From the NCBI GenBank assembly GCA_025349905.2, contig MU624817.1:1-15182 (forward strand): DNA of 15,182 nt, in the 5' to 3' direction. This document shows, piece by piece, positions 799-15,120 of this stretch; position 1 is the stretch's first letter; each line of letters starts with the position of its first letter. A program made the position numbers and the translations under genes. This DNA is from Blastocladiella britannica (taxonomy: Eukaryota; Blastocladiomycota; Blastocladiomycetes; Blastocladiales; Blastocladiaceae). Below the pieces are notes generated by a model, which saw only the letters and a program-made list of their open reading frames with translations, did no database searches and was not told the origin of the DNA.

Positions 799-3700
799 TC
801 AACACCCACCGCCGCCCCCACCGGACGACGACATCGAGGACGACACCGGCCGCGCGACCGTGTACAGCGCATGCAACGCCTCGGCGTCCTTGAACACGAA
901 CGCCGCGTCGTCAAAATCGTCCGCCGTGCCCGCCGCCGCCCCCGCGACACCGCCATTCGAGCTCCCTCTTCCCTCCAGAGGCCCGACCGCAGCAGAAAGA
1001 GTGACCGATGATGGAATGGATGACGACCCGGTCGATGAGGATGAGGGCACGTACGACGCCATCGAAATCCCGCGCTGTGCGTTGCGCGCCTCGTGGTACG
1101 ACAGATCGTCGGCCGCGTCCAACGTCGGGGTGAACGGCGGGACCATGTCGTGAAGACGCGTCCAGTCGGTGCCGGAAAAGAACCGGTGCCGTTTTACGTC
1201 TGGTTATAAGTAACTGGTGAGTTCAAGTCATGGAAATGAAGCGAGAGATCATTGCGGACCTTTAGCACGGAACCGGCGCTTGGGTTCCGGCTGCAGCAGC
1301 GCCTCGATCAGGGCCTTCGCATCGGGGTCTAGATCATCCTCGGGCCATTGGACCGCTATTTTTACCTTACGAGTGAGTCTTTGACGCAAAAAAAAAGAGG
1401 TGGAACATACTCATTTGCACAATGTTGGCAAAGATCTCCTCAGGCGAATCGGCCATGAACGGCGTGTACCCAGCCAGCAGCTCAAACAGGACGACACCGG
1501 CCGCCCACCAGTCCACGGCATCGTCGGTTCCGCCCAGACCCAGGACCAGTTCGCGCGCAACGTAGTCGGGGGATCCGGGCACCGTTGGAGGACGCTGGCC
1601 ACTGGGTTTGCGGCGGAGCGTGGCCGCGCGGTCGAGTTGTTGGCTGATCCGCTTGATGGTTAAGGTTGGGTCTTCCACGGCGCGTTCGGGTAGGACGCTA
1701 TTTGGATCATTTTGTTATTGCACTTGACGAAGAATGATCGGGAGGAGGAGAGGAGATGCGTGTACCTCAGGCCAAAGTCCGTGAGCCGAATGTGACCCTT
1801 GGCATCAATCAGGATATTGTCGGGTTTAATATCGCGGTGGATGACCTGTCCAATTTTTTTTAATTTTTATGAGCAAGAATGAAATGAAAAAGTGCGAAAA
1901 AGAAATGAATACCTTGTGCTGGTGAAGGTACTCGAGCGCCGACGACAGCTGCGCGACATAGAACCGCGCCATGGGCACTTCGAAGCACCCGTACACGCCC
2001 AACAGCGACGACAAGTCCCCGCCCGGCATGTACTCCATGACCTAAAATCATCACCATCAGTTCTCCAACCATCCAAACCAAAACCCAAAACTGTACAGTA
2101 CCAGCACAAAGTGCTCCGCGCTCCGAAACGTGTAAAACAACCGGACCACGAAATCCGACCGGGCCAGCGCCATCGCGTTGCGTTCCGCCAGCACCTGGTT
2201 CATCAAGTTCTTGCGCCTCATGTCGTTGATGTCCACCACTTTGGCCGCAAACGTGTCCCCCGTGGTCCGTTTCTTGGCCAAGTACACTTTGCCGAACGCG
2301 CCTTTCGAAATGGGCCGCAGAATATCGAAATCTTCCAGGCGCGGGATCTGGCGGGTGCGGCCGAGCGACGTGGACCGCGACCGGGGTTTGGGCGACCGCG
2401 AGGAGCCCAGGAGATTGGGCGTGAGGACCGCCATGAACAGGTTGAGGAACGTGCCGGCTGGGGAGGACGATACGTTGGGTGCGGGCGACAGGCCACGGGC
2501 GGACGCCGAGACGTCGGTGCCCAGGGCCAACGACGTGGCCGACGACGACACCGACGCGGCAATCCCACGCGACTGCCGGACCACCGCGGGCGCCGCCGTG
2601 ACGTACCGGTGCAGCGCCGACAATTTATCGGTTCCCAATGCAATCACGTTCCGCGCCAGGACCTGGAGTTCGGCGTCCGCGATCTGCACCTGACGACCAA
2701 CCCCGTCCACGCTCGCTTGCAATTTCCCGACCAGCCGCTGCACCAAGTCGCACGACCGGTCGTCCTTTTCGTCGGCGTCGGCGATCCGCGACCCGTACTT
2801 GAGCACCACCTCGGCCTCGCGCGACAGCGGGTCCGTCACCTGACCTTGCATGCGCCGCTCGGCTTCCAGGTGGTTCTTGCGAGCTACCACGTTGGCCATC
2901 AGACGCCGGATCCGCGAATCTACCTGGTACAGCTGCAGCTCGCACTCGGAGAGGATCTTGCACGCCACGCGATGCACCTCGAGGTTTTCGACGGGGACGC
3001 GCATCTCGCAGACTCGGCACAGCGCTAGTTGCCACGACGATGCCAGTGGGGACGACGCGTGCGACGCGGAGCCCGTGCGCCGGTGCAGGGGCGTCGGGCG
3101 CGTTGGGGACACGGGCGACGAGTCGGACCGTGGGCGGAACCCGCCACTAGCAGTTGGATCGGCGGATGCCGGCGTAGTAGTAGCTGCAGCAGCGCTGCTG
3201 TCACGGTCAGCCGTCCGCAACGGCGACGAGGACCGCGACGACGACCGCCGTTGGCGACCGGGCGAGAGCGCACTCAACGAGCCCCGCAGCGCCGACGAGA
3301 CCGACTTGAAGAAGTTGCCGACCAGCGGCGACGACGATCCCGTCTTGGACCCGGAGGCCCGGCGGCCGCGCTGCGGCTGCTCGTCCTGGAGGTCGGGCGG
3401 GGCGGTGGCCGACCGTTTCTCGGACGGGTCCAGGGTGGTGGTGAGTGGCGAAGGGCGGCGGCGGGACGCTTGCGTAGCTACGGTGACGGTTGCAGCAGCG
3501 GTGGTCTCGGGAGCAGCAGTGGTCGTTAACGGTGACGATGGCGTGGACGACAACGTCAGGCGCGCGTGGGCAGACAGGTCGGGCTCGCTGCGTGATCCAT
3601 GCAGCGACACGTGCTCGGCCGCTTCGCGCAGCAGGTGTGGCGGCAGAACGGCAGTGGACAGGCGGCGGTGGTGCTCGGCATCTAGGGAAGGGACTGGTGG

Positions 3701-4534
3701 CGGCGGCGACGATTGTGACGACGACGAAATGACACCGCCAACCAGGGGCCGGAGCGGAATGCGGGCTGCCGCGGGCGAGGGTAGGCGCGACGTGTTGGCG
3801 GACGATAAGCGCGAGTGTTGCTCGTCGTCCTCGGTCACGACCGACCCAACAGTGGCCAAGTCGCGCGACCCGGTAGCGGCAACCGAGTAGGCGCCACTTC
3901 CAGCGGCTGCCAAAGCTGCAGCAGCAGATGATCGCACCAGGGCTGCGAGGTAGTCCGATTGGAGCGGGAGCGGGGGTTTCCGTTGGAGTCCAGAAGTAGT
4001 GGGGTCGGTTGCGACCGCCGACGAAGAGCCCACGTAGTCCTGAGCGCGCGCGGACCAGCGCACGGCGGCACGGTGGCATTCGACCAGGCGCGCGAGCGGA
4101 GCGAGAATGTAGAGCATGGCGGTGATGAACAGGGCGGCGCGGTCATTGTTCTCAACGATGGTAGTACTAGCAGTAGCATTGGAAGAGGAGGAAGCAGAAA
4201 GGCCACGCGACTCGCCCAGCGCCGCCTGCAGTGCGGCAATCGTGTCGCCAACAAAGTCCGAGTACACCAGGGCGTCCAGCGACGAGGCGGCGAGCACCGA
4301 GTGGGCCAGCACAGCGGCTTTGGCCAGTGGCGCAGAGACCAGTATATCCGAGGGCGAAGGGACCCATTGGTCCAGGGCCGAGCGGATGGCAGTGTCGGCT
4401 TTGAGTTTGACGGCAGCCAACTCGTCCAGCACAAACTGCACATCGGCGAGGCTGGGCGAGGCACTCGAAACAAATGCGGCGGTCTCGGGCCTCTCCAGGG
4501 TGGTTGGGAGCAGCGGTGATAGCGCGTGGTCCAT
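799..4534 (-). CDS. RIM15: Rim15/Cek1/Greatwall-family AGC serine/threonine protein kinase, six exons
   Basis: Spliced model: complement(799-1199, 1260-1355, 1411-1697, 1766-1845, 1913-2041, 2102-4534). This is 3426 nt and 1141 aa, and each junction keeps frame. Domains: a helical N-terminal region (about 1-200); a long Ser/Pro-rich disordered region (200-500); a C2HC zinc finger, CRVCE...H...C, at about 506-525, a hallmark of fungal Rim15/Cek1 kinases; a helical linker; and a kinase domain from about 736. Motifs: P-loop [11 protein letters not shown] (743-753), catalytic Lys765, HRDIKPDN (857-864), DFG (877-879), [22 protein letters not shown]. The tail [20 protein letters not shown] resembles the AGC-type tail of Rim15. 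Rim15-type kinases act downstream of TOR/PKA in quiescence by phosphorylating endosulfines. Oddities: the APE motif reads ARE, and the protein ends in a Gly run plus Cys with no response-regulator domain. The ATG at 4534 is the first in a long open exon. The weakest junctions are the GTCCGC donor (1258-1259) and the exon 4/5 join. Confidence 0.88.
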
Positions 4535-4674
4535 TTAAATCCCAGCTACCAGAAGGTACGTCGCTGGGCTGTATGCGTTTGGAAAAAAAAAGGGGAGTAG
4601 AAGAGACACACGCCTGTCACAACCAATCCGGAAATCCAAGGAAATGGGAAGAGCTGAAACAACGTGATCTCGAT

Positions 4675-4695
4675 CCTGTACAACTGCTGTACAGG
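4675..4695. promoter_or_regulatory. perfect inverted repeat, operator-like dyad
   Basis: The sequence is CCTGTACA, a 5 bp spacer (ACTGC), then TGTACAGG: two perfect 8 bp arms. It lies about 140-160 bp upstream of the kinase start codon, a plausible position for a dimeric transcription-factor site. The symmetry is seen directly; the function is inference. Confidence 0.4.
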
Positions 4696-4784
4696 CATGC
4701 CAAAAGAAAAGGCAAATCAAGAGAGGGTGGGGTATAAGCCCAGTTGGAAGGTAGAAAGGGGGTTGGGGTGGGCCAAATTATGAC

Positions 4785-4975: not shown

Positions 4976-6283
4976 CTACGCTGCCACCACAGCCGTCACT
5001 GGCACAGAGGCCTCGGCCGCCTCCGCCAAACGAACCAACAGCGCCGACGGCTGCCTCTCACACAAGGTCGCCCCGCACACGTTCCAGAGTTGGTCCCGCG
5101 CGGCAGCCGTCCCGGACGAGCACGTATCGTCCGCCACCGCCCGCTCCATCCGCAAAGCCCACCAGCGAGGGAACAACCGGCACCACTCCATGTCCGCCTC
5201 GGTCTCGCGCCTGCGAACATTGAGCGGCCGCTCGCCCTCCTCGCACTCATCGATCAAGGCCGCCCACTGCTTGCGGTGGTGGTCCCGGAACACGTTGAGC
5301 GCGTCGAGAAGGCCCTTGATCACCTTCTTGAGGGCGGCGGCCTTCTCGATGGCAGCGGCCCTTTCGACGGCGGTGGTCACGCCAGGAATCACCTTGGCCA
5401 GGGCGAGCTCCTTCCGCCGCAAGCGGAGCGCCTTCTTGAGGGCGGGACGCGAGTGGGTCTTGGGGCACCCCACCAAGGTGCTCCACTCGATGCGGGGCCT
5501 CTTGATGGCGCGCCACTCCTCGAGGCGAGGACGCGCGGCGGGCGCGCGAATCGGGCCGGTCGTGCACCACCGTGCAGCCCCATGTACAGGAACAAAGCGT
5601 GGCCCCACCGGTACTTGAACAGGTCGATGATCGCCGCCATCGTCGGGACCTGGAGCGACGGCATGCGGGCGTCGATGGCCTTGATCTCGGGCGGCCTGGC
5701 CTCCAACGCCTTGTGCTTGGCCTTCGCGATGTTGTCGCCGCACCTGTGGATGTACTCCTTCCGCGAGAGCGCGCGATCCCTCGACGTGCCATCGGTCTCT
5801 ACGATCACCAGCGACTGCACCTTGGTCGCACCCGGATCCGACCCGATCAGCTTCCTGAAGTTGTGGCCCCCAATGTTGTGGTACATCTTGTTGGTGTCCT
5901 TGCGGTACGGTCAATTTTGATGTTGCCGGTGGTCTCGTCGGTGGTGGTCGTGGTGGTGATGGTCGTGGTGGCCGAGTTGGTGGCGGTGGATGGGCGAACG
6001 GAGCCGCGTCGACGTTCAGACCACGAGCGGACATGGTGGCGGTGGTGGCGGTGGACGCCGTCGTGGTCACAGGCACGCAAGGTTTGGGCGCAGCCCGTGC
6101 CTTGTTCACCATCTTCAGACGGCATGTGGTGCCGTCCGAATAGATGTGCCCACCAAACTCGCGCCCAACAAAGGACGTCGGGTTGCCCTTCTTGTCGAAA
6201 TGCCGATCGGGATGGAACAGCAATTCCCTCCACCGGTCTTCCTTGCTCAACTTCATGAAATCTTCATGTGAAATAAGTTCGGT
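4976..6283 (-). pseudogene. Fanzor1-like (eukaryotic TnpB-type) nuclease relic, internally deleted and frameshifted
   Basis: Read leftwards from an apparent intron acceptor (6284-6285, TGTGTAG), one frame gives TELISHEDFMKLSKEDRW and then FGGHIYSDGTTCRLKM. This resembles the segment before RuvC-I in Fanzor1 proteins (an F..I.TDG motif). After a low-complexity stretch a second frame (5886 to about 5540) gives RKLIGSDPGATKVQSLVIVE. That is a RuvC-I motif with its Asp at 5836-5838, followed by SRKEYIHRCGDNIAKAKHK and IKAIDARMPS, the Fanzor1-like segment after RuvC-I. The sequence then jumps to LFLYMGLHGGARPARF, which elsewhere in this window follows RuvC-III. RuvC-II, the zinc ribbon and RuvC-III are therefore missing. 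A third segment, back in the first frame (about 5540-4976), encodes a C-terminal extension shared with the relic at 10120-10760. Fanzors are RNA-guided DNA endonucleases carried by eukaryotic transposons. This copy cannot encode one. It lies divergent to a transposase relic. Confidence 0.7.
5930..6065 (+). repeat. GGT/CCA-rich low-complexity insertion inside the Fanzor relic
   Basis: Irregular GGTGGT / GGTGGC / GGTCGT repeats lie between the conserved pre-RuvC segment and the RuvC-I segment. On the relic's strand they read Thr/Pro/Ala-rich in every frame. The frame change between the two conserved segments lies at or next to this stretch, so repeat slippage is a likely cause of that break. 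Confidence 0.6.
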
Positions 6284-6302
6284 CTACACAAAAAATAAGT
6301 GA

Positions 6303-7361
6303 GCCACCACCATTGTCAACGCCCAATTCTCGGCGCCGCCGCCTCGACGTTACTGGAAGCGCGCGTGCACGGCAGCTTGTGTCTATTCTCGCGGCCGTCA
6401 CCCGCCACGCCAGTACCGGCACAAAACTCCATGCCCTTTATGCGAACATTTTCTAAAATACTCTGTGACCGAGGTCAAGACCATCTTTGGCAAGTCCAAA
6501 GCGACCATTAACACCTGACTCGCGATTCACCGTGCTGGCAAGTCTCTGGATCGCCAGGAGACTGAGAAAGTCTTTCGCAAGTTCTCGCTTGACCAATGCA
6601 AATGGATTTATTGTTATTTCCAAGCAAATCCAGCATCGTACCTCAACGAAGCTCAACAAGCGTTCACCGAGCATTACAACACGATCAGCAAGTCAAGTGT
6701 TTCACGCATCCTCCATTCTCTTGGTATGACACGGAAGGTAAATCTTTGCTCTGTCAACGCGGATTTCATTTCAAATGCTGCACTGACATTTGATTTCATT
6801 CTTGGACTGCCGACAGGTACTTGAAACCCCGTGCAATCCAGATCAAAGAATCCGAGGTCGCTCGCTTTGTTTACGAGCTGAATTCCCTGGCGTGGACCCC
6901 TTCCAACTTGGTCTTTCTTGACTGATGGCACATTCACTCGCCGCAAGTTTGCCGAATCCTGCGCATCGTTTGCCAAGTACGGGCCTATCAACGCGTATCC
7001 TGGTCGCAACTCTATTTGGATTTTGGACGGCGCAAAGATCCATTGTCACCCCAGCATTATCATGTACCTTCGTTCGATTGGGATTGTCCCCATCTTCCTG
7101 CCTGCCTATTGTCCCTTCTTCAACCCAATCGAGGTCTTTTTCGCAATTGTCAAGGCTCGGATGCGTCGCATTTACCAAGAGAACACTCTGACCGCGAAAA
7201 CGCTTCCCATCAAGGTCGCAGAGATCATGTTTTTGTTCCGGCACATGAACATGTCCCGTCTGTACGCCAAATGCGGTTACGAGTTCGCTGGCCGTTTTGA
7301 TCTGCGGGCATACAAGACCGAGGTGCTTGAAGATGACGAGGAGGCCCAAGACACCGTATGA
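6303..7361 (+). pseudogene. Tc1/mariner-type DDE transposase relic (DDE_3-like)
   Basis: One frame is open from 6303 to 6737 except for a TGA at 6516-6518. It includes CEHFLKYSVTEVKTIFGKS, then SLDQCKWIYCYFQANPASYL and SVSRILHSLGMTRK, the helix-turn-helix region. A recognisable intron follows (GTAAAT at 6738 to ACAG at 6816), and the next exon resumes with VLE. A 1-nt frameshift at about 6824-6830 leads to RAIQIKESEVARFVYELNSL and LVFLD, which carries the first catalytic Asp, then a stop at 6923-6925. The remaining ORF (6918-7361) begins TDGTFTRRKF and carries WILDGAKIHC (second Asp) and FLPAYCPFFNPIEVFFAIVK (the Glu). Related transposases have roughly 50 more residues between VFLDE and TDGTFTR (from memory), so there is an internal deletion as well. 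At least three lesions make it inactive. Related transposases are cut-and-paste enzymes. Terminal inverted repeats were not found by eye. The part before about 6430 is uncertain and may include flanking DNA. Confidence 0.8.
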
Positions 7362-7504
7362 TATGGATACCAACTGCAGCACCGAGTGGAGGCGAGCGTA
7401 TATTATTGAGAGCTGCATTGTAAATATTATTTTAAAACCAAGCCTGAATATATTACCGGTATGATTAATGTGGTATTCTTGTTCTCACTCTGCATGCTTC
7501 TCCT

Positions 7505-8484
7505 TCATGGTTGGTGATCAACATCCTCCGTATCAGGCATGTCATGGAGCATCGTCTCGAGTTCGCCAGTGACAGGCCCCAGTTCAACTTCAAAGGACGC
7601 AACGGTTTCGAGCTGGGCTTGAAGACGCGCCTGAAGCGCCCTGGCCCTGCCCGTGGTCACCTCCAACTCTTCCAAGATCTGGGAGACGGCCGTAGTGGTT
7701 GATGCCAGGAGCTCACGAGCAAGCCGCAAATTCCCACGAAGGTGCACAACTTGCAAGTCGCCTGCAGAGTTGCGGCACTGGGTGTACATGGCATCCAGTG
7801 CCGATGGCGGCGGCAGGTCGATCAAGCGTTCGCGCTGCTCCTTGGTCATCGGCTGCACAATCCGCGCTGCCCACATGGTCCAGAAGCTTTGCTGGCCCTC
7901 CAGACGCCCGCCCCACCCCGCACGGAGCCGCTCAACAATCTCGTCCTCTGTGATCTGGTTTGGGGCACCAGCGCGGTCGGACGGGCCAGCACGGAGCATT
8001 GCCTGCACAGCCAGCAGCTTGGGTTTGGCTGTCACCTGACAACCATACTTTAGGATGGCGAGTTCGAAGGGTGTACCGTGATCACGCCAGCCTTGAAGAG
8101 CAGCTTCAGTGACAGGGTGGGGTGCTAATAAAGGAACGAGCTTCAGACCAAGTCGAAGAGAAGAATAAAGCGGAGACGCACAATCCGGGTCAAACCTGTA
8201 CGGATGGCTGCTAGTCGAAATTATGAACGATTCGTCAAACAACTCGATGCTTGGGTCCTGGAGAAGCCAACCGTCGTCGGTTGCCAAGGCAACACACTGG
8301 AGGTGCCGCGAGTACCGGCTCCAAATGAGTGCTTTCAACTCAGTAGGATCGACAGTGTCAAACTCCTCTGATGGCAGAATGATGGCTGTGTTCCTGTGCT
8401 GGCCGTTTGTGTCCTTGAGAAGGACAGTCGGTTTGAAGGCCACGTTCCGTGAGGTGCCAGGGGGAGGAGGGGAAGGAGGTTGCC

Positions 8485-8519
<35 letters not shown>

Positions 8520-8536
8520 GCTATGACCACGGACAT
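7505..8536 (-). CDS. hypothetical protein with C-terminal coiled coil; N-terminus uncertain
   Basis: A 343-codon uninterrupted frame, stop at 7505-7507. I do not recognise the family. The body (from about residue 27, RNVAFKPTVLLKDTNGQ) has ordinary, mixed composition. It has a mixed sheet/helix-looking N-terminal third, a Trp-rich middle (AGWGGRLEGQQSFWTMWAAR) and a helical, heptad-like C-terminal end (RARALQARLQAQLETVASFE) that probably forms a coiled coil, with an acidic tail. The N-terminus is suspicious: the ATG at 8536 leads into a run of Val encoded by a hexanucleotide repeat. Upstream, two other frames have alternative starts. One is at 8648 (MLSAIQSDSASSAG...), which hits a stop near 8523. 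The other, at 8609, encodes a hydrophobic leader (MLPVLLPALFLVLPLILVL) followed by an Arg-Gly repeat. Either could join the body by an intron or after a repeat-length change. It is divergent from the SNARE gene, with about 350 bp between. Confidence 0.6.
8485..8520 (+). repeat. hexanucleotide microsatellite (CCACGA)n, about 6 units
   Basis: Six tandem CCACGA units (last one CCACGG) lie near the 5' end of the minus-strand hypothetical gene, with degenerate units continuing to about 8530. On the minus strand the unit reads Val-Val in the long frame, Arg-Gly in a second and Ser-Trp in the third. Whole-unit changes keep frame, but imperfect units may not. Confidence 0.85.
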
Positions 8537-8649
8537 GAGTGGCGGCAGGAGGGAGCACCAAGATCAGCGGCAGCACCAGGAACAGCGCTGGTAGCAGCAC
8601 CGGCAGCACCGGCCGAGGACGCAGAATCAGACTGAATGGCGGAGAGCAT

Positions 8650-8999
8650 GGTTGCAGGAGACTATTTTGTCGTCGAATTTGGGCCAGATGACAAGAGAAA
8701 AAATACCAATACCAAAATATAATAATAAATTTATTAGTTGATGAGAGATGGTGGTCAGGGAGGGAGACAAGAAAAAAAAAATCGGAGGGGCGATGTTAGT
8801 CACGTGAGTTGTGCTGCGGTTTGATGCTCCGCTTGAGAAGTGGAGCCGACCAGTTTTGAACGGCAGCCGCAATAATTCGCGAGAATGAGATTCCGAAGAA
8901 TCAAACTTTGATTTCCTCCAAAAACGCCATCACCTCTCCTGAGCCGTGCAGCGCCACGGCATCTTCAAGAATTAAAAAAAATCGCAAACTATCAACAAA
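8650..8999. promoter_or_regulatory. divergent promoter region with a CACGTG E-box
   Basis: About 350 bp separate the minus-strand hypothetical gene from the SNARE gene start. The stretch includes an AT-rich segment (8700-8740), short A runs and one palindromic CACGTG at 8801-8806. CACGTG is the core recognised by fungal bHLH factors such as Cbf1, Pho4 and Tye7. A single hexamer is weak evidence. I see no gene here. Confidence 0.4.
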
Positions 9000-9967
9000 A
9001 TGCAGGACCCATTTGACGAGGTCAGGGCGTATGTATTCAAATTTCCTCACACAAGACTCAAACTGGTAGTGATGATACATACACAGCTCCGTCGCCGACA
9101 ACCTCGCCTCGGCCCGCCAACTATTGTCCTCATGGCGCGCTACAACTACTGGCCCGGACCCTCCGCCTCCACGTATTCGCATGCTGCTATCGTCCATTGC
9201 CGCCGATCTTGACGATCTAGCCGAGACGGTGGCAGTTGTGGAGCGCGATCCCGCTCGGTTCCGGTTATCGGTGGCCGATGTGACCTCCCGTCGCCAGTTT
9301 GTGGCATCTTCACGGTCCGAGCTGCGGGAATTGAACGCGGCCCTTCAGTCCGGTCTGTCTGCGGCCGAGTCGGGGAGGCGAGCTGTATGGTTTTGTCCAT
9401 TTCTTGGATGGTATTCATAGACTGATTTATGGAAATAACATACAACAGGCGCTGATGGGCGCTTCTGCCTCTGGGAATGGCATTCGATCTGCAGCAGCAG
9501 CGGCAGCCCCACCATCGCTCAAGAATGGCAACCAGGGATTCATTGACGACGAAATGGGGAAACAGCAGCTGATGATGAAGAGCCAGGACCACCAGCTCGA
9601 TGCGGTACTCGGTACCGTCACCAATCTCAAGCAGGTGGCCGTGGTCATGGGCGATGAGATTGAGGATCAGATTGGGTATGTTTTTTTTTCTTTGTATTTT
9701 GAATGGAATAGGTATTGACAACCCACACTTGGTAAAGACTCATGAACGAAATGGAATCGGACGTAGACCGAACGCAGGACAAGCTGCGCGGGGCCATGAG
9801 TCAAATGGACAAGATCCGGCATGCGAGCAATGGTACCTTTACATTTCCATATTCTCGTTAAGTTACCACATAACTGACTATATAATGAAACAGACACCAA
9901 AGCAACATGGCTCATTGTCGCTCTGACAATAGTGCTGGTGCTCCTGATTGTGTTTATTTTGGTGTGA
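9000..9967 (+). CDS. TLG1: Tlg1/syntaxin-6-family Qc-SNARE, five exons
   Basis: Model: join(9000-9028, 9087-9384, 9449-9675, 9738-9832, 9894-9967), 240 aa. All four introns are 58-64 bp, GT-AG and frame-consistent. The N-terminus MQDPFDEVRASVADNLASAR matches the syntaxin-6 type start (DPF...V). Residues to about 109 form the three-helix N-terminal domain, including DDLAETVAVVERDPARFRLS and RRQFVASSRSELRELN, close to the conserved D...T..VE..P..F.L pattern. The SNARE motif runs from about 155 to 216; DVDRTQDKLRGAM carries the likely zero-layer Gln198. A single transmembrane helix (about 221-240, WLIVALTIVLVLLIVFILV) ends the protein, as expected for a tail-anchored SNARE. Family members mediate fusion of endosome-derived vesicles with the trans-Golgi network, as the Qc partner in four-helix SNARE complexes. 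The short first exon is set by the family motif and the GTATGT donor. No lesion is visible. Confidence 0.93.
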
Positions 9968-10068
9968 CAGAAGGACAAGAAATGGATTGCTGTTCGATAT
10001 GGGCGACTGTTCCAAGTCAGCGAGGATCCCGATATCCGAGTCCATGAGGATCAACGTATTCCTCATAC

Positions 10069-10084
10069 AAAAAAAAAAAAAAAA
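10069..10084 (+). repeat. A16 homopolymer
   Basis: Sixteen consecutive A residues lie about 100 bp after the SNARE stop and just beyond the 3' end of the second Fanzor relic. Read on the relic's strand it is a T run, so it is not a retroposed poly(A) tail of that gene. Confidence 0.9.
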
Positions 10085-10119
10085 TGCAGCGAGTTGCTCA
10101 AGAGGAATGCACATCTGAT

Positions 10120-10760
10120 TCAACCCGCACCAAGTCGGCGCAACATCACCGTCGGCGTTTCCGCCACCTTGGCCGCCTCACGCATTTGGCGGACATGCCT
10201 CAACGCATGCGCCAACCCGCATCCCTCGCCGACCGCGGCCGCCTTCTCCATCCGGCGAGCCCACCAGACCGGCAGCAACCAACACCACGCCATGTCCGCC
10301 TCGGTTGCGGCCTTGCCTCTGGCAAGCAGCCCATTGACCTGCTTGAGCTCGCCGATCATCGCCGACCACTGCTGATCGTGGTGCTTGCGGAACACGTCGA
10401 GCTTGGTGAGGAGGTCACTGCACTTGGCAATGACAGGGCCTTGGCGAGACCAGCCTGCGTGCGCGTCTTGGGGCAGCACGGCATGGCCTTCCAGTCGATG
10501 CGGGGCCGCCGGATGGCGCACCACTCCATCTTGCCAGAGACCGGGGCGGGCAGCTTCTTGGTGCGCGAGAACGGGCCGGCCGCGCGCCGCCAAAGCATTC
10601 CATGTACAGGAAGAGACCGATCATGTTGCGAGCGGCATTCGCGTCACGATCGATCACAAACTTGCACACCCGGCAGGCGCGCGTCCCCCACGGCTTGCCC
10701 GGCACGTCGTCCAGGACGTTGTAGCATCCACAACAGAGCTTGTTGGGTGTTGGTTTTGAA
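10120..10760 (-). pseudogene. Fanzor/TnpB-like relic: zinc ribbon, RuvC-III and C-terminal extension only
   Basis: Read leftwards, the first recognisable codons (about 10745) give NKLCCGCYNVL, then GTRACRVCKFVIDRDANAARNM. This is a four-cysteine zinc ribbon (CxxC...CxxC) directly followed by the DRDxNAARN motif that carries the last RuvC catalytic Asp (10643-10645) in TnpB and Fanzor proteins. LFLYMECFGGARPARS follows. The frame then changes at about 10590 to GPFSRTKKLPAPV and MEWCAIRRPRIDWKAM. It changes again near 10440 to the long segment ending at the stop 10120-10122, which includes LDVFRKHHDQQWSAMIGEL and ATEADMAWCWLLPVWWARRM. Everything before the zinc ribbon, including RuvC-I and RuvC-II, is absent, so the copy is 5'-truncated as well as frameshifted. 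Its C-terminal extension is clearly homologous to that at 4976-5540. It sits between the SNARE and ATOS genes, with no transposase next to it. Confidence 0.75.
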
Positions 10761-10937
10761 AAATAAAATATGTTGGTCCAAAGAGGGTCAGATTATTTCC
10801 AACGGAAAAGAATAGAGGCGATTGCTATTTCCATGGGAATTTCCGGACAGATTTCTCTTAGAGTTCAGCCACCACTCAAACAGCAGTGTGGTTGAGCTTT
10901 CCCAATTGAAAAAAATCGAATTACACCATCATCCGCC
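10761..10937 (+). promoter_or_regulatory. short upstream region of the ATOS-like gene
   Basis: These 177 bp lie between the truncated end of the second Fanzor relic and the ATG at 10938. The last 20 bp before the ATG (AATTACACCATCATCCGCC) are A/C-rich, a favourable fungal start context. No clear TATA box is visible. Confidence 0.35.
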
Positions 10938-13128
10938 ATGCCTCAGCTCATCCCGACTACCATACCACCGAAGCCGAAGGCGACGACGGCGAGGTCCACC
11001 ACTCCGCCCATGGTGGCGACAACGGCAACGGAGCCGAAGGGTGGTCGCCCGTACTCGTCCATTGACCAGCTGCACCTGTCGCTCGCAACCGTATCGCCGC
11101 GCGCAATTCCTTCCGCACCAACCTCCACCTCCTCGGCCTCGGCCAGCCCCGTACCCAGTCCACTTCCGTCGCCCTTGATGGCTGCGCATCCCACTTCTCT
11201 TATGTCGCCGTCAGTCCCACCGCTCATGGTGCGGTCAGTGTCGATGCCAGTCCCGATTGTTCTGCCCACTACCGCCGCCACTCCGTTTTTAATGGCGGCA
11301 ACTGACATGGTGACAGTGCCCGCTACTCTTCCGAGATTTGGTGGGTTTGGTGGCAATGGTGGGAATGGAAGTGGGAGCAGCGGCGGCAGCAGCAGCAGCA
11401 GTGGAAGTGGGAGCGGAAGTGGCGGCATCGCAATCCCCGAGGCGGGGCCGGTGCTCGGGTCGCCCGACGGCAAGGACCCGTACCGGTACGGTGTCTTGTT
11501 CGAGGACCGGACTTCTGTCGCTTCTTCTGCCGTCGTTCTGCACTCGTCTGCTCTTCTGCCAGCACGCCCGCTGCCGCCAATGCCGCCGGCTATTTCGACA
11601 CTGCCAGTCACGACAGTGCAGCAGCAACCACCACGGCCAGCATCGCGGGCAATGGCACCGCTCCCACCCTTACCCTCACCCTCATCCCCACTTCAACGAC
11701 AGTCGCCGGCGATCTCTGGTCTCGCCAGTACCCCACGGCGCCGGTCGTCGCTCCTGCGCATTGGCCGCGTGCTCCGTCAGCCCTCTTCATCGTCGGTCCT
11801 GTCCACCTCATCCACTTCCTCTCTGACATCGTCGTCGTCGTCCCCCTCTTCCTCGGACTCGGAGGACGAACTGATGTTTGTGCGCAATCGCCGCCCATCG
11901 ACCGCTCCCGTGGCGGGTATCAGTGCGGCATCCAAATTTGTCGGGAGTTATGAGGTTCGCATTTTCACAATTTCATTTGTTTCGAATTCATTTCACATCA
12001 CTTTTTTTATTCATTGACTGTTGACACTTGATATATCAGGAATCACTCCTGTCTGGCCGCCTATCGATGCGCGCGTCACGGCCCATTGCATTCGACGTGT
12101 CGATTGGCGTGATCGGCCTGGGCAAGTGCAAGCCCAAGCTCCGGTGCCCGCCGCACGCGTCCGCCATGTTTGCCGCGCACTACTACGACCTCTCGGCCGC
12201 CGACAAGGATATTCTGACGCTGGCGTCATCGTCTCCACAGTCGCCGCCGTCGCCGACGCGATCCGTCTTTGGCGGCAATTCCCCACCCGCGCCCCTGCAC
12301 GCGGACTTGGATGCCAGTAGTAGCAGCGAGTGGTTTGCCTCACCACCACGGCCCGCGAGCCCCCTTCGCTCTGTCGGCGGCGCAGCTCTGTACATATCTA
12401 CCTCCACTTCCACTTCATCGGCCACGTCCCCTCCATCGCCGTCCATGGGCCCGTCGTGGAGCCCGTACGTTGGCGTCATCAATCTGGACGAGTTACCCGC
12501 GCCGGGATCGACCAAGACCAACGGAAGTGGATCGGACATGGATATCACCACACCAACAGCACCGCCACCACCACGGTTCAACTCGGAGGGGGTGGTGGGC
12601 GGTTACGAGATCCCGGCGCGCGGGCAGCTGCAAATCATGATCAAGAACCCGAACCGCACCGCTATCAAAGTGTTTCTGGTCCCCTACGACCTGTCCACGG
12701 TGCCGCCGTCACACCGCACGTTCATTCGGCACAAGCAACATGCGGTGCCCAACCCGGACAAGACGAGTGGAGGGAGTTCAGGGGCAGCCGTGGACGGCGT
12801 GCCCGTACCCAAGTCGGCGGGGGCCGTGGCATCGCACGCGGTCGCATCGGCGTTCCCGGCGCGGGCACTGCGGTACGCGCTGCACATTCCGATCGTGTGC
12901 ACGCCGCGCGGACGGTACTTTTTGGCCGGACACGGCGGGCTGCGCGTGGTGTTTTCGGGCAAGTCGGTCGAGTCGTACGAGAAGCTCGTGGCGTCCACGG
13001 AACCGCCGCTGGCGCCGACGCCGTGGGTGCCAACCATCAAGGCAAAGAGACCAGCACTGGTCAAGAGTAACAAGGCGCGGCAGTCCAGTACGGCCGCCGC
13101 AGAACTCGTCAGTCCCATCAATCGCTGA
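10938..13128 (+). CDS. ATOS/FAM214-like protein (DUF4210 plus C-terminal Chromosome_seg-type domain), two exons
   Basis: Model: join(10938-11954, 12040-13128), 701 aa. The 85 bp intron (donor GTTCGC, acceptor ATCAG) restores the conserved string GSYEESLLSGRL. Residues 1-330 are disordered: Pro/Ser/Thr-rich, with a Gly/Ser run and an acidic SSDSEDE patch. The DUF4210-type domain begins at about 334 (FVGSYE|ESLLSGR) and continues with IGVIGLGKCKPKLRCPPHAS. A disordered insert follows. Next comes the C-terminal module: GYEIPARGQLQIMIKNPNRT (from 527), KVFLVPYDLS (549-558), LRYALHIPIVCTPRGRYFL (from about 616) and LRVVFSGKSVESYEKL. These strings closely match animal ATOSA/ATOSB (FAM214A/B, Drosophila Atossa) and their fungal relatives. 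The fly protein is a nuclear transcriptional regulator; fungal members have been loosely linked to meiotic chromosome segregation by annotation. The function here is inferred from family only. Both halves of the conserved core look intact. Confidence 0.88.
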
Positions 13129-13420: not shown

Positions 13421-15120
13421 ATGCGCTCTGTTCTTGCCATTTTCTTGCTTGCCCTGGCGATTAATGCCGCCCCATACAACAAGTGCCCGGTTAACACGTA
13501 CCCGGCGGCCGGAGAGTCATCGCTGGTGATTGCTGCCACGTCGTCGGTTCCATACGGCAAGCATCACTCCACCTCTGTGTACTCGACTGAGACGTCGACT
13601 GTTCCCGCTTCGTCGACCTCGACCAAGTCGTCCACCAAGTCGGCTTCGTCGTCGTCTTCGACCAAGTCGGCTACTGAGTCCTCGACCAAGTCGGATGCCT
13701 CGACCTCGTCATCTACCAAGTCGACCTCGTCGTCTTCGTCGTCGTCGACTCTGACCAAGTCGGACTCCACCTCCACCACGTCCACCACCCCGGCGACCAC
13801 CACCACCACCACCTCGACCGCGACCTCGACGGCCACCAGCACCAGCACCTCATCGACCACCACCACCATCCCCGTCGGCAAGACTGAGACCTCCACCTCG
13901 ACCAGTGCGACTGCGACCTCCTCCACCACCACCTCGGCCACCCCCGTTCCGACCCCCGGCGCGTCCCGCAACGTTGTCGCGTACTTTGTCAACTGGAAGC
14001 CCGAGTACCAAGTGACCGACCTGCCCGTGGAGGACCTGACCCACGTCATTTATGTACGCTCACATTCAAAAAAAAAAAACGACGACTCTGTGTTTCACAT
14101 TCTAACTCACTTTAATTGTCATAGGCCTTTGCGATCCCCAAGAACGGCGTGGCAGTGATGACCAGCGCGGCGATCGACGCCAAGCAGATCCCACTGCTCA
14201 ACGACCCGACCGGCCCCGTGCGCACGCGTAACCCGGCCATCAAGTCGCTCATGTCGATTGGCGGGTGGTCGGGAAGCGCCGAGTTCTCGACGATCGCCAA
14301 GACCGCAGCGACTCGCGCGGCATTTATCGCATCGGTCGTCAAGATTGTCGGCGACAACGGATTTGACGGCGCCGATATCGATTGGGAGTACCCGGGCACC
14401 GACGGGAACGCCGGGAACGTGATTGACGCGGCCAACGACGGCGCTAACTTTACATTGCTGCTGGCCGAGCTCCGCGCGGCGCTCGCCAAGTGCCAGGCCG
14501 ACAAGAACCGCAAGCACGCGTACTTGGTCACCGTGGCCACCGGCGCTTCCGCTAACGCGTACTCCAAGCTCGATATGGCTGGTCTGGCCGCCAACGTCGA
14601 TTTCGTCAACGTCATGACCTATGACGCGTCTGGGCCGTGGTCTCCCGCCACCGCTCACAACGCGCCCCAGTCGCTCATCAAGGCCGCCATGTCCGGTTAC
14701 ATTGCTGCCGGCCTGCCCGCCAGCAAGCTCCAGTTCGGGATCCCGTTGTACGCGCGCGCGTTCGCCGGTGTCAAGTTCGGCGATGCCACCATGGCCCAGA
14801 TTGTCGGTGGTGGCCAGGCGTTCAACAAGGCCCTGGCGGCGCCCGGTACCGCCGAGCCGTCGGTCGTGGACTTTAACGAGATTGCGTCGGCCAAGTACAT
14901 TGGCAACAAGGCGTACAGCAAGGGGTACGACAGGGCTGAGAACGCGCTGACGCTGTGGAGCGCCAAGGACGGCGTGTGGATCAGCGCCGAGGACGCGACG
15001 ACCGCCAAGGCCAAGTCGGCGTTTGCGGTCCAGCAGGGACTCGCTGGTGTGTTTGTGTGGGAGGCGTCGCAGGACAAGTCCAACGCTATTGTCCGCGCCA
15101 TCAAGGTTGCCCTTGCATAA
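13421..15120 (+). CDS. secreted GH18 chitinase with N-terminal Ser/Thr-rich stalk, two exons
   Basis: Model: join(13421-14053, 14125-15120), 542 aa. The 71 bp intron (GTACGC...CATAG) joins VIY to AFA, restoring the GH18 string THVIYAFA. A signal peptide (MRSVLAIFLLALAINA) precedes a short region with one Cys and then a Ser/Thr/Lys-rich stalk (about 50-175) likely to be heavily O-glycosylated. The GH18 barrel starts at about 182 (SRNVVAYFVNW). Key motifs: SIGGW (255-259) and DGADIDWEYPG, with Asp292, Asp295, Asp297 and the catalytic acid Glu299. MTYD (375-378) supplies the Tyr and Asp that help position substrate. FGIPLYARAF and VFVWEASQD follow, as in active family members. The enzyme should hydrolyse beta-1,4-GlcNAc links in chitin, outside the cell or in the wall. 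No chitin-binding module or GPI signal is seen at the C-terminus. The stalk preceding rather than following the catalytic domain is the less usual arrangement. A TATA-like element lies upstream. Confidence 0.93.

What the first reader, a model, noticed from the sequence alone, without database searches (positions are those of the whole stretch)
4976..10760. Two Fanzor relics share an unusual C-terminal extension beyond RuvC-III
In TnpB/Fanzor proteins the chain usually ends soon after the DRDxNAARN motif. Here both relics continue for roughly 150 residues of related sequence. EEWRAIKRPRIEW pairs with MEWCAIRRPRIDW, VFRDHHRKQWAALI with VFRKHHDQQWSAMI, and TEADMEWCRLFPRWWALRME with TEADMAWCWLLPVWWARRME. 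The match is at protein level between diverged DNA copies, which suggests the extension was under coding selection. It may be a family-specific domain not normally described for Fanzors, or a separate small gene carried just downstream.
Basis: partly seen in the sequence, partly recalled or inferred. Interest (0 to 1): 0.75.

Follow-up and report, generated by a model that had tools for sequence, protein, structure and literature searches.

The report
Fanzor family with added C-terminal tail
The two broken genes are dead copies of a fungal family of RNA-guided DNA-cutting enzymes (Fanzor) that carries, in the same reading frame, an extra tail of about 160-190 amino acids, found so far only in this one fungus and of unknown use.

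Summary
Both relics are real. But relic 1 (4979-6283) lost its zinc finger and RuvC-III by an internal deletion; only relic 2 keeps RuvC-III before the tail, and there the frame is broken. Elsewhere in the genome the tail is fused: in 8 of 8 other copies read here that hold both motifs, RuvC-III lies exactly 123 nt before the tail start, in frame (7 without a stop), across four subfamilies; four stay open to the TEADM motif. A separate downstream gene is therefore very unlikely. The relic pair itself does not show coding selection (dN/dS 0.98 and 0.68 for the two tail parts; core 0.24-0.31). Across four subfamilies a 56-codon Trp-rich block shows moderate constraint (pN/pS 0.33-0.78; 7 of 10 intervals below 1); the tail has coding-like GC3. 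Both published Fanzor fingerprints are met. The element's right end is a candidate guide-RNA scaffold (good folds in s1, not in s2). No homologue of the tail was found outside this species in searches of limited sensitivity. Verdict: a lineage-specific, fast-evolving C-terminal extension of Fanzor; a new variant of a known kind, function unknown.

The parts
4979..6283 (-). Relic 1 (subfamily s1): 435-aa open frame; the tail is read in this frame, the RuvC-I part in another frame (5910-5392)
6083..6283 (-). N-terminal remnant of relic 1 ending in ...FGGHIYSDGTTCRLKM..., 44% identical over 57 residues to a stretch of C264 (s4)
5830..5844 (-). RuvC-I motif GSDPG of relic 1
4979..5533 (-). C-terminal extension (tail) of relic 1; TAG stop at 4978-4976
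4609..4723 (-). Non-coding right end of relic 1; folds as a candidate guide-RNA (omega RNA) scaffold; element terminus GGCGTG at 4609, 74 bp before the ATG of a kinase-like gene
10418..10792 (-). Relic 2 (subfamily s2): zinc finger and RuvC-III frame; homology to family begins at 10742; RuvC-III RDANAARN at 10648-10625
10425..10529 (-). First part of the tail of relic 2 (MEWCAIRRPRIDW...)
10123..10443 (-). Second part of the tail of relic 2 (...VFRKHHDQQWSAMI...TEADMAWCWLLP...), joined by a deletion to the element's right end at 10110
6519..7358 (+). Broken Tc1/mariner-like DDE transposase (DDE_3 match in 6882-7358) just upstream of relic 1; not shown to belong to the Fanzor element

Best explanation
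Shown: The encoded protein has the marks of a Fanzor (RNA-guided RuvC nuclease) and does not stop soon after RuvC-III but continues in the same frame for about 160-190 residues to a TAG codon just before a pyrimidine-rich tract; a non-coding right end with RNA-like folding follows. The two window features are dead copies of subfamilies s1 and s2. Inferred: the core works as in other Fanzors, with an RNA scaffold transcribed from the right end, a guide read from the flanking DNA and RuvC cutting. The probably helical, charged/Ala-rich tail with a conserved Trp-rich patch (QW...E...EADM.WC...W..RM) is an accessory interaction module, comparable in role (not homology) to the cyclophilin-binding insertion of PpFz1. 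By pN/pS it is roughly one and a half to three times less constrained than the nuclease core.
For: Fusion: 8 of 8 copies outside the window that hold both motifs have RuvC-III and tail start 123 nt apart in one frame, 7 of 8 without a stop (C37, C215, C3b, C1, C81, C525, C64; C499 has one stop); open to TEADM in C37, C215, C3b, C1; C348 keeps an in-frame fusion with a shortened tail. Fanzor identity: PF07282 above cut-off in 7 of 7 matches; SpuFz1 8gkh is the best of 2 PDB matches to profile A2, E 5e-4; DPG motif and Glu six residues before the zinc finger, the published fingerprint. Coding: GC3 of the tails 0.73-0.92 with lower GC1 and GC2, core 0.75-0.84, two host frames 0.84 and 0.78; frame 0 of four tails stays open in only 0.7-2.4% of base shuffles; relic 1 and C499 are in the same codon phase in 527 of 540 shared tail columns although lengths differ; TAG stop before a T-rich tract in s1, s2, s3 and s4. 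Selection: 56-codon block pN/pS 0.33-0.78, 7 of 10 chosen comparisons (of 35 possible) with intervals below 1, other frames 0.76-1.46. All-helical model, low confidence.
Against: Constraint on the tail is weak: with DNA-only alignments 18 tail comparisons give pN/pS 0.63-1.44 (intervals below 1 in 5 of 18), against 0.39-0.44 in 4 core comparisons. s1 versus s2 gives dN/dS 0.68-1.41 in 8 comparisons, and fixed differences show no third-position excess in the three pairs of subfamilies counted (s1-s2, s1-s3, s2-s3) over the whole tail. No copy read here is intact from start codon to tail stop. The model of the tail has pLDDT 57. With the single C37 sequence the best PDB match was a TnpB-like chain (9b0l, E 0.0036) and no Fanzor. 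No homologue with known function. Any role of the tail is inference.
Confidence: 0.8

Rival explanations
1. The tail is not a selected protein part: it is 3' sequence read through in a GC-rich genome where long open frames are common, so the match is merely homologous DNA.
For: The relic pair and s1-s2 in general show dN/dS about 1 with no third-position excess; only 5 of 18 DNA-only tail comparisons exclude 1; another frame of C499 is also open for 301 codons.
Against: GC3 pattern of coding sequence, fixed in-frame spacing in four subfamilies, stop codon in the same setting in four subfamilies, pN/pS below 1 in 7 of 10 comparisons of the motif block with other frames near 1.
Confidence: 0.13
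2. The tail is a separate small gene just downstream of the Fanzor.
For: Some tail copies are found without a core, for example C88 fused to an unrelated open frame, and many at contig ends.
Against: Same frame and no stop between RuvC-III and tail in 7 of 8 copies; of the tail-only s4 copies read here, C88 is truncated at its 5' side, C178, C290 and C139 run off the contig, and C87 has a run of N upstream, so none shows a gene start of its own; s4 has a copy, C64, with core and tail in frame.
Confidence: 0.03
3. The tail was a one-time fusion that hitch-hiked and is now relaxed in s1 and s2; only s3/s4-like ancestors used it.
For: Constraint is clearest in comparisons with s3 (s2-s3 0.33, s3-s4 0.48-0.51), while s1-s2 is 0.65-0.78 there; s1 copies sharing one tail-end deletion (C37, C215, C337, C498) have multiplied.
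Against: Open frames and coding GC3 persist in s1 and s2; few independent lineages, so branch-wise rates cannot be separated.
Confidence: 0.3

Closest known systems
Fanzor1 proteins, e.g. SpuFz1 of Spizellomyces punctatus (PDB 8gkh)
   Same: RuvC core; the DEY.TS..C spacing of the relocated Glu to the zinc finger as in the SpuFz1 alignment; best of 2 PDB matches to the profile A2; structured right end
   Different: In the SpuFz1 chain at most 60 residues remain beyond the aligned part (972 of 1032), and these must still hold the second zinc-finger half and RuvC-III; here the chain goes on for about 160-190 residues after RuvC-III
[quoted passage not shown]
   Same: A Fanzor1 with a lineage-specific accessory domain, there shown to bind cyclophilin
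   Different: FRI lies inside RuvC; here the extra part is at the C-terminus; no homology was tested between them
Fanzor1 families of Allomyces macrogynus (3 families in Bao and Jurka 2013, PMC3627910, table passage seen)
   Same: Fanzor1 in the same fungal phylum (phylum of Allomyces recalled)
   Different: Their C-termini could not be examined here; homologue searches returned no Allomyces protein
Bacterial TnpB
   Same: TnpB family model matches the zinc-finger/RuvC-III part of C37 (NF040570, E 1e-7); TnpB-like chains match it in the PDB
   Different: 31 bits against a cut-off of 100; DPG and relocated Glu mark Fanzor; extra tail

Membership tests
Fanzor (TnpB-related eukaryotic nucleases) | RuvC-I with DPG | tested here: met
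   GSDPG in relic 1, C37, C215, C3a, C3b, GLDPG in C2; criterion read
Fanzor (TnpB-related eukaryotic nucleases) | Catalytic Glu six residues upstream of the zinc finger (Ealt) | tested here: met
   DEYRTSKLC in C37, C215, C3b, C499, C2, C64 and DECRTSKLC in C1; six residues lie between Glu and the first Cys, as in SpuFz1; criterion read
Fanzor (TnpB-related eukaryotic nucleases) | C4 zinc finger (PF07282) followed by RuvC-III RD | tested here: met
   7 of 7 own-genome matches above cut-off; of 11 copies with a tail start, 9 have a RuvC-III motif (7 RDANAARN, 1 RDANATRN, 1 SDANGARN), relic 1 and C3a lack it by deletion
Fanzor1 (against Fanzor2) | Place in the Fanzor1 clade of a tree | not tested
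   No tree was built; only the profile match to SpuFz1 points to Fanzor1
Fanzor1 | N-terminal WED/REC half | tested here: inconclusive
   C264 and relic 1 keep part of an N-terminal half ending in a TDG/SDG motif; likeness to known Fanzors recalled, not computed; the own-genome search with this stretch gave 4 matches only, one of them relic 1
Fanzor1 | Omega RNA encoded at the 3' end of the element, guide beyond the right end | tested here: inconclusive
   Fold z -3.3 and -3.9 in two s1 copies, 0.4 and 0.0 in two s2 copies; 3 of 20 consensus pairs with changes on both sides; no RNA data
Fanzor1 | RNA-guided DNA cleavage | not testable with these tools
   needs experiment
Fanzor1, described members | Chain ends soon after RuvC-III | tested here: not met
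   Tail fused in frame in 8 of 8 copies outside the window. A usual trait rather than a defining one, so it does not exclude membership

The most novel reading that the evidence does not exclude
The tail is a new Fanzor domain, selected in this lineage to bring a partner (host protein, the transposon's transposase, or the RNA scaffold encoded right behind it) to the nuclease: the first C-terminal accessory module of a Fanzor, parallel to the cyclophilin-binding FRI insertion.
Probability: 0.3. Interest if true: 0.55.

Novelty: new variant of a known kind. Interest (0 to 1): 0.4.

Why it matters
In the passages I saw, the size differences of Fanzor1 proteins are put down to insertions in REC, RuvC and the zinc-finger domain (PMC10711439; PMC11423790). 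A fused C-terminal module kept across four subfamilies of one genome gives a natural site where Fanzors tolerate, and perhaps use, large C-terminal additions. That is useful for asking what Fanzors do for their transposons, and for where extra domains may be attached. The family is, however, mostly decayed and known from one species.

Tried and rejected
Separate-gene reading: rejected by the fixed 123-nt in-frame spacing. Subfamily s4 looked like a tail-only family until C64 showed core and tail in one frame. C2 looked like a tail-less Fanzor but is cut off 3' of VAAG, where C64 goes on. Protein-guided alignments gave lower dN/dS (0.30-0.76 in 11 comparisons of the second tail part of s4 with s1, s2 and s3; 0.36-0.93 in 3 of the first part) than DNA-only alignments allow, so the first figures are partly an effect of the alignment; both are reported. 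I first thought the right end much better conserved than the tail; between s1 and s2 it is only modestly so (mean identity 70% over 36 pairs against 62% over 12 pairs). A fold search with the tail model was not run because its confidence is too low. Pfam, NCBIfam and the PDB gave no match to the tail above cut-off; Rfam gave nothing in the window. Target-site duplication: seen by eye only at C37 (CAATACA on both sides); the transposon superfamily was not settled. Literature: Fanzor with Blastocladiomycota gave 0 papers, Fanzor with C-terminal domain 8, Fanzor with C-terminal and fungi 7, Fanzor alone 82 of which 40 were listed; a search with C-terminal extension asked for either term and listed 5 of 5,292, so it says little. 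No listed title or start of abstract describes such a tail; texts were seen in passages only, plus one whole section.
Full report
What was checked. Homologue searches returned proteins of Blastocladiella britannica on contigs of 116,226, 116,907 and 19,346 bases, the exact lengths of C2, C1 and C337 in this genome; a fourth hit lies on a contig of 18,455 bases that I did not match. The organism is very probably B. britannica (Blastocladiomycota).

The two relics. They are homologous at DNA level (blocks of 176 bp at 71.0% and 157 bp at 70.1%). Relic 1, however, has no zinc finger and no RuvC-III: against copy C37 about 399 bp are missing, and copy C3a aligns across this junction without a break. 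Its RuvC-I (GSDPG) and its tail are also in different frames. Relic 2 has part of the zinc finger and RuvC-III (PF07282, E 1.4e-4, below cut-off), but tail and RuvC-III are out of frame (122 nt apart), and its tail is cut by a deletion that joins it to the element's right end.

The family. Own-genome searches with the relic-1 frame, the C37 frame, the C1 tail, the C525 tail and the C178 tail gave 61, 56, 45, 46 and 61 matches (overlapping sets, fragments counted separately, many at contig ends). I read part of these: 63 loci in all, many overlapping. By eye and by the matches they fall into four subfamilies: s1 (relic 1, C3a, C37, C215 and others), s2 (relic 2, C3b, C499, C1, C81 and others), s3 (C525) and s4 (C64, C178, C290, C88; C2 by its core, 83% identical to that of C64). 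No tree was built.

Fusion. In 38 sequences scanned (window and 37 loci), 11 copies hold a tail-start motif and 9 of these also a RuvC-III motif; relic 1 and C3a lack RuvC-III by deletion. In the 8 outside the window the spacing is exactly 123 nt, in frame, with no stop in 7 (C3b, C215, C37, C525, C1, C81, C64) and one stop in C499. The frame stays open up to TEADM in C3b, C215, C37 and C1; in C525 and C81 a frameshift lies in between, and in C64 TEADM was not found. C348 also reads in frame from RuvC-III into a shortened tail. RuvC-III motifs without a tail start were seen in C348, C419 and C2. C2 and C348 are explained by truncation or deletion; C419 (L047) runs into sequence without the tail and was not explained further. 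C88 shows the reverse: a tail joined to an unrelated open frame, without a Pfam match, which looks like a 5'-truncated element.

Is the tail coding and selected? GC3 of the tail segments is 0.73-0.92, above their GC1 and GC2, as in the core (0.75-0.84) and in two host frames (0.59/0.50/0.84 and 0.64/0.56/0.78). The frame remains open in only 0.7-2.4% of base shuffles of four tails. The reading frame ends with TAG just before a pyrimidine-rich tract in s1, s2, s3 and s4. Relic 1 and C499 share codon phase in 527 of 540 aligned columns in spite of a 39-nt and a 3-nt gap and, near the end, gaps of 13 and 5 nt. Against this, the pair in the window gives dN/dS 0.98 and 0.68 for the two parts, and eight s1-s2 tail comparisons give 0.68-1.41, while core comparisons between subfamilies give 0.24-0.31 with a third-position excess. 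Fixed differences in the tail show no third-position excess (s1-s2 38/35/30, s1-s3 48/38/40, s2-s3 46/49/43). With alignments made on DNA alone, 18 tail comparisons give pN/pS 0.63-1.44, 5 of them (all s2-s3 or s3-s4) with intervals below 1, and 4 core comparisons 0.39-0.44. Within the conserved 56-codon block (10 copies, four subfamilies) 10 comparisons chosen from 35 give 0.33-0.78, 7 with intervals below 1, the two other frames 0.76-1.46; the relic pair itself gives 0.78 (0.51-1.39); 13 residues are invariant, among them two Trp and one Cys. These comparisons share sequences and are not independent. I conclude that the tail is a translated part under moderate constraint in its Trp-rich block, and near-neutral in its first third and in the s1-s2 split.

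Membership. Both published fingerprints of Fanzor, DPG and a Glu six residues before the zinc finger (PMC10711439, section read), are met. SpuFz1 (8gkh) is the better of two PDB matches to the profile A2 (E 5e-4); with the single C37 sequence the ten matches up to E 10 were mostly TnpB-like and Cas12-like chains and no Fanzor by name (best 9b0l, E 0.0036). In the SpuFz1 chain only 60 of 1032 residues lie beyond the aligned part, so it has no comparable tail. C264 preserves part of the N-terminal half with an STDG motif and an RG-rich linker.

Right end. 18 right ends were found by pattern and 13 of them aligned (left out: C337, C304, C256, C211 and relic 2, which are deleted, masked or near-duplicates). 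47 of 119 columns are invariant; s1-s2 pairs are 66-78% identical, mean 70%, against 61-64%, mean 62%, in the tails, so the difference is modest. The alignment folds into a CUCUCGAU-type stem with two inner hairpins (20 consensus pairs, 3 with changes on both sides). Single folds are better than shuffles in two s1 copies (z -3.3, -3.9) but not in two s2 copies (0.4, 0.0). By analogy with the 75-nt scaffold next to the inverted repeat of S. punctatus loci (PMC10432273 passages) this is a candidate omega RNA; no RNA evidence was available.

Mechanism proposed. A Fanzor nuclease with a C-terminal helical accessory module; the model of the tail is all-helical but of low confidence (pLDDT 56.9). 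The nearest precedent for a lineage-specific accessory domain is the FRI insertion of PpFz1, which binds cyclophilin (PMC11423790 passages). What the tail binds is unknown.

Limits. The homologue searches score only the roughly 8,000 candidates sharing most words and bound the length of hits, so absence outside B. britannica is weak evidence. No full-length intact copy was seen.

Noticed in passing
window 4609 and right ends in L021-L045: Right ends of these elements lie just upstream of start codons: 11 of 17 right ends are followed within 150 nt by an ATG that opens at least 150 codons in sense, against 760 of 3000 random points in the same loci (Fisher p 7e-4, thresholds chosen). At 300 nt and 60 codons there was little contrast: 15 of 18 against 389 of 500. 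Relic 1 ends 74 bp before a kinase-like gene.
   Followed up: partly
window 6519-7358 (+): Broken Tc1/mariner-like transposase with DDE_3 (E 2e-9) lying between the relics, on the other strand, where the N-terminal half of relic 1 should be.
   Followed up: no
L048 (C88:6500-9500), ORF 579-1628 minus: A 350-aa frame in which unrelated sequence without a Pfam match runs in frame into an s4 tail: possible capture of the tail by a host gene, or a truncated insertion.
   Followed up: partly
L023 3137 and 5062 (C37); L048 and L059 right ends: Element ends: 5' CACGGCTGGGGAGAG, 3' GACAGGCGTG in s1 and CTCAGCCGTG in s4, i.e. short imperfect terminal inverted repeats; C37 is flanked by CAATACA on both sides.
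   Followed up: partly
L057, L063: An Ala/Thr-rich (L057) or RG-rich (L063) low-complexity linker sits upstream of RuvC-I or just behind the TDG motif in this family.
   Followed up: no
window 14125-15117 (+), 12025-13125 (+), 9076-9417 (+), 2060-4534 (-): Host genes: GH18 chitinase, DUF4210/Chromosome_seg protein, syntaxin 6/10/61 N-terminal domain, protein kinase. The GenBank model P0002 of the C2 Fanzor leaves out its RuvC-III stretch.
   Followed up: no
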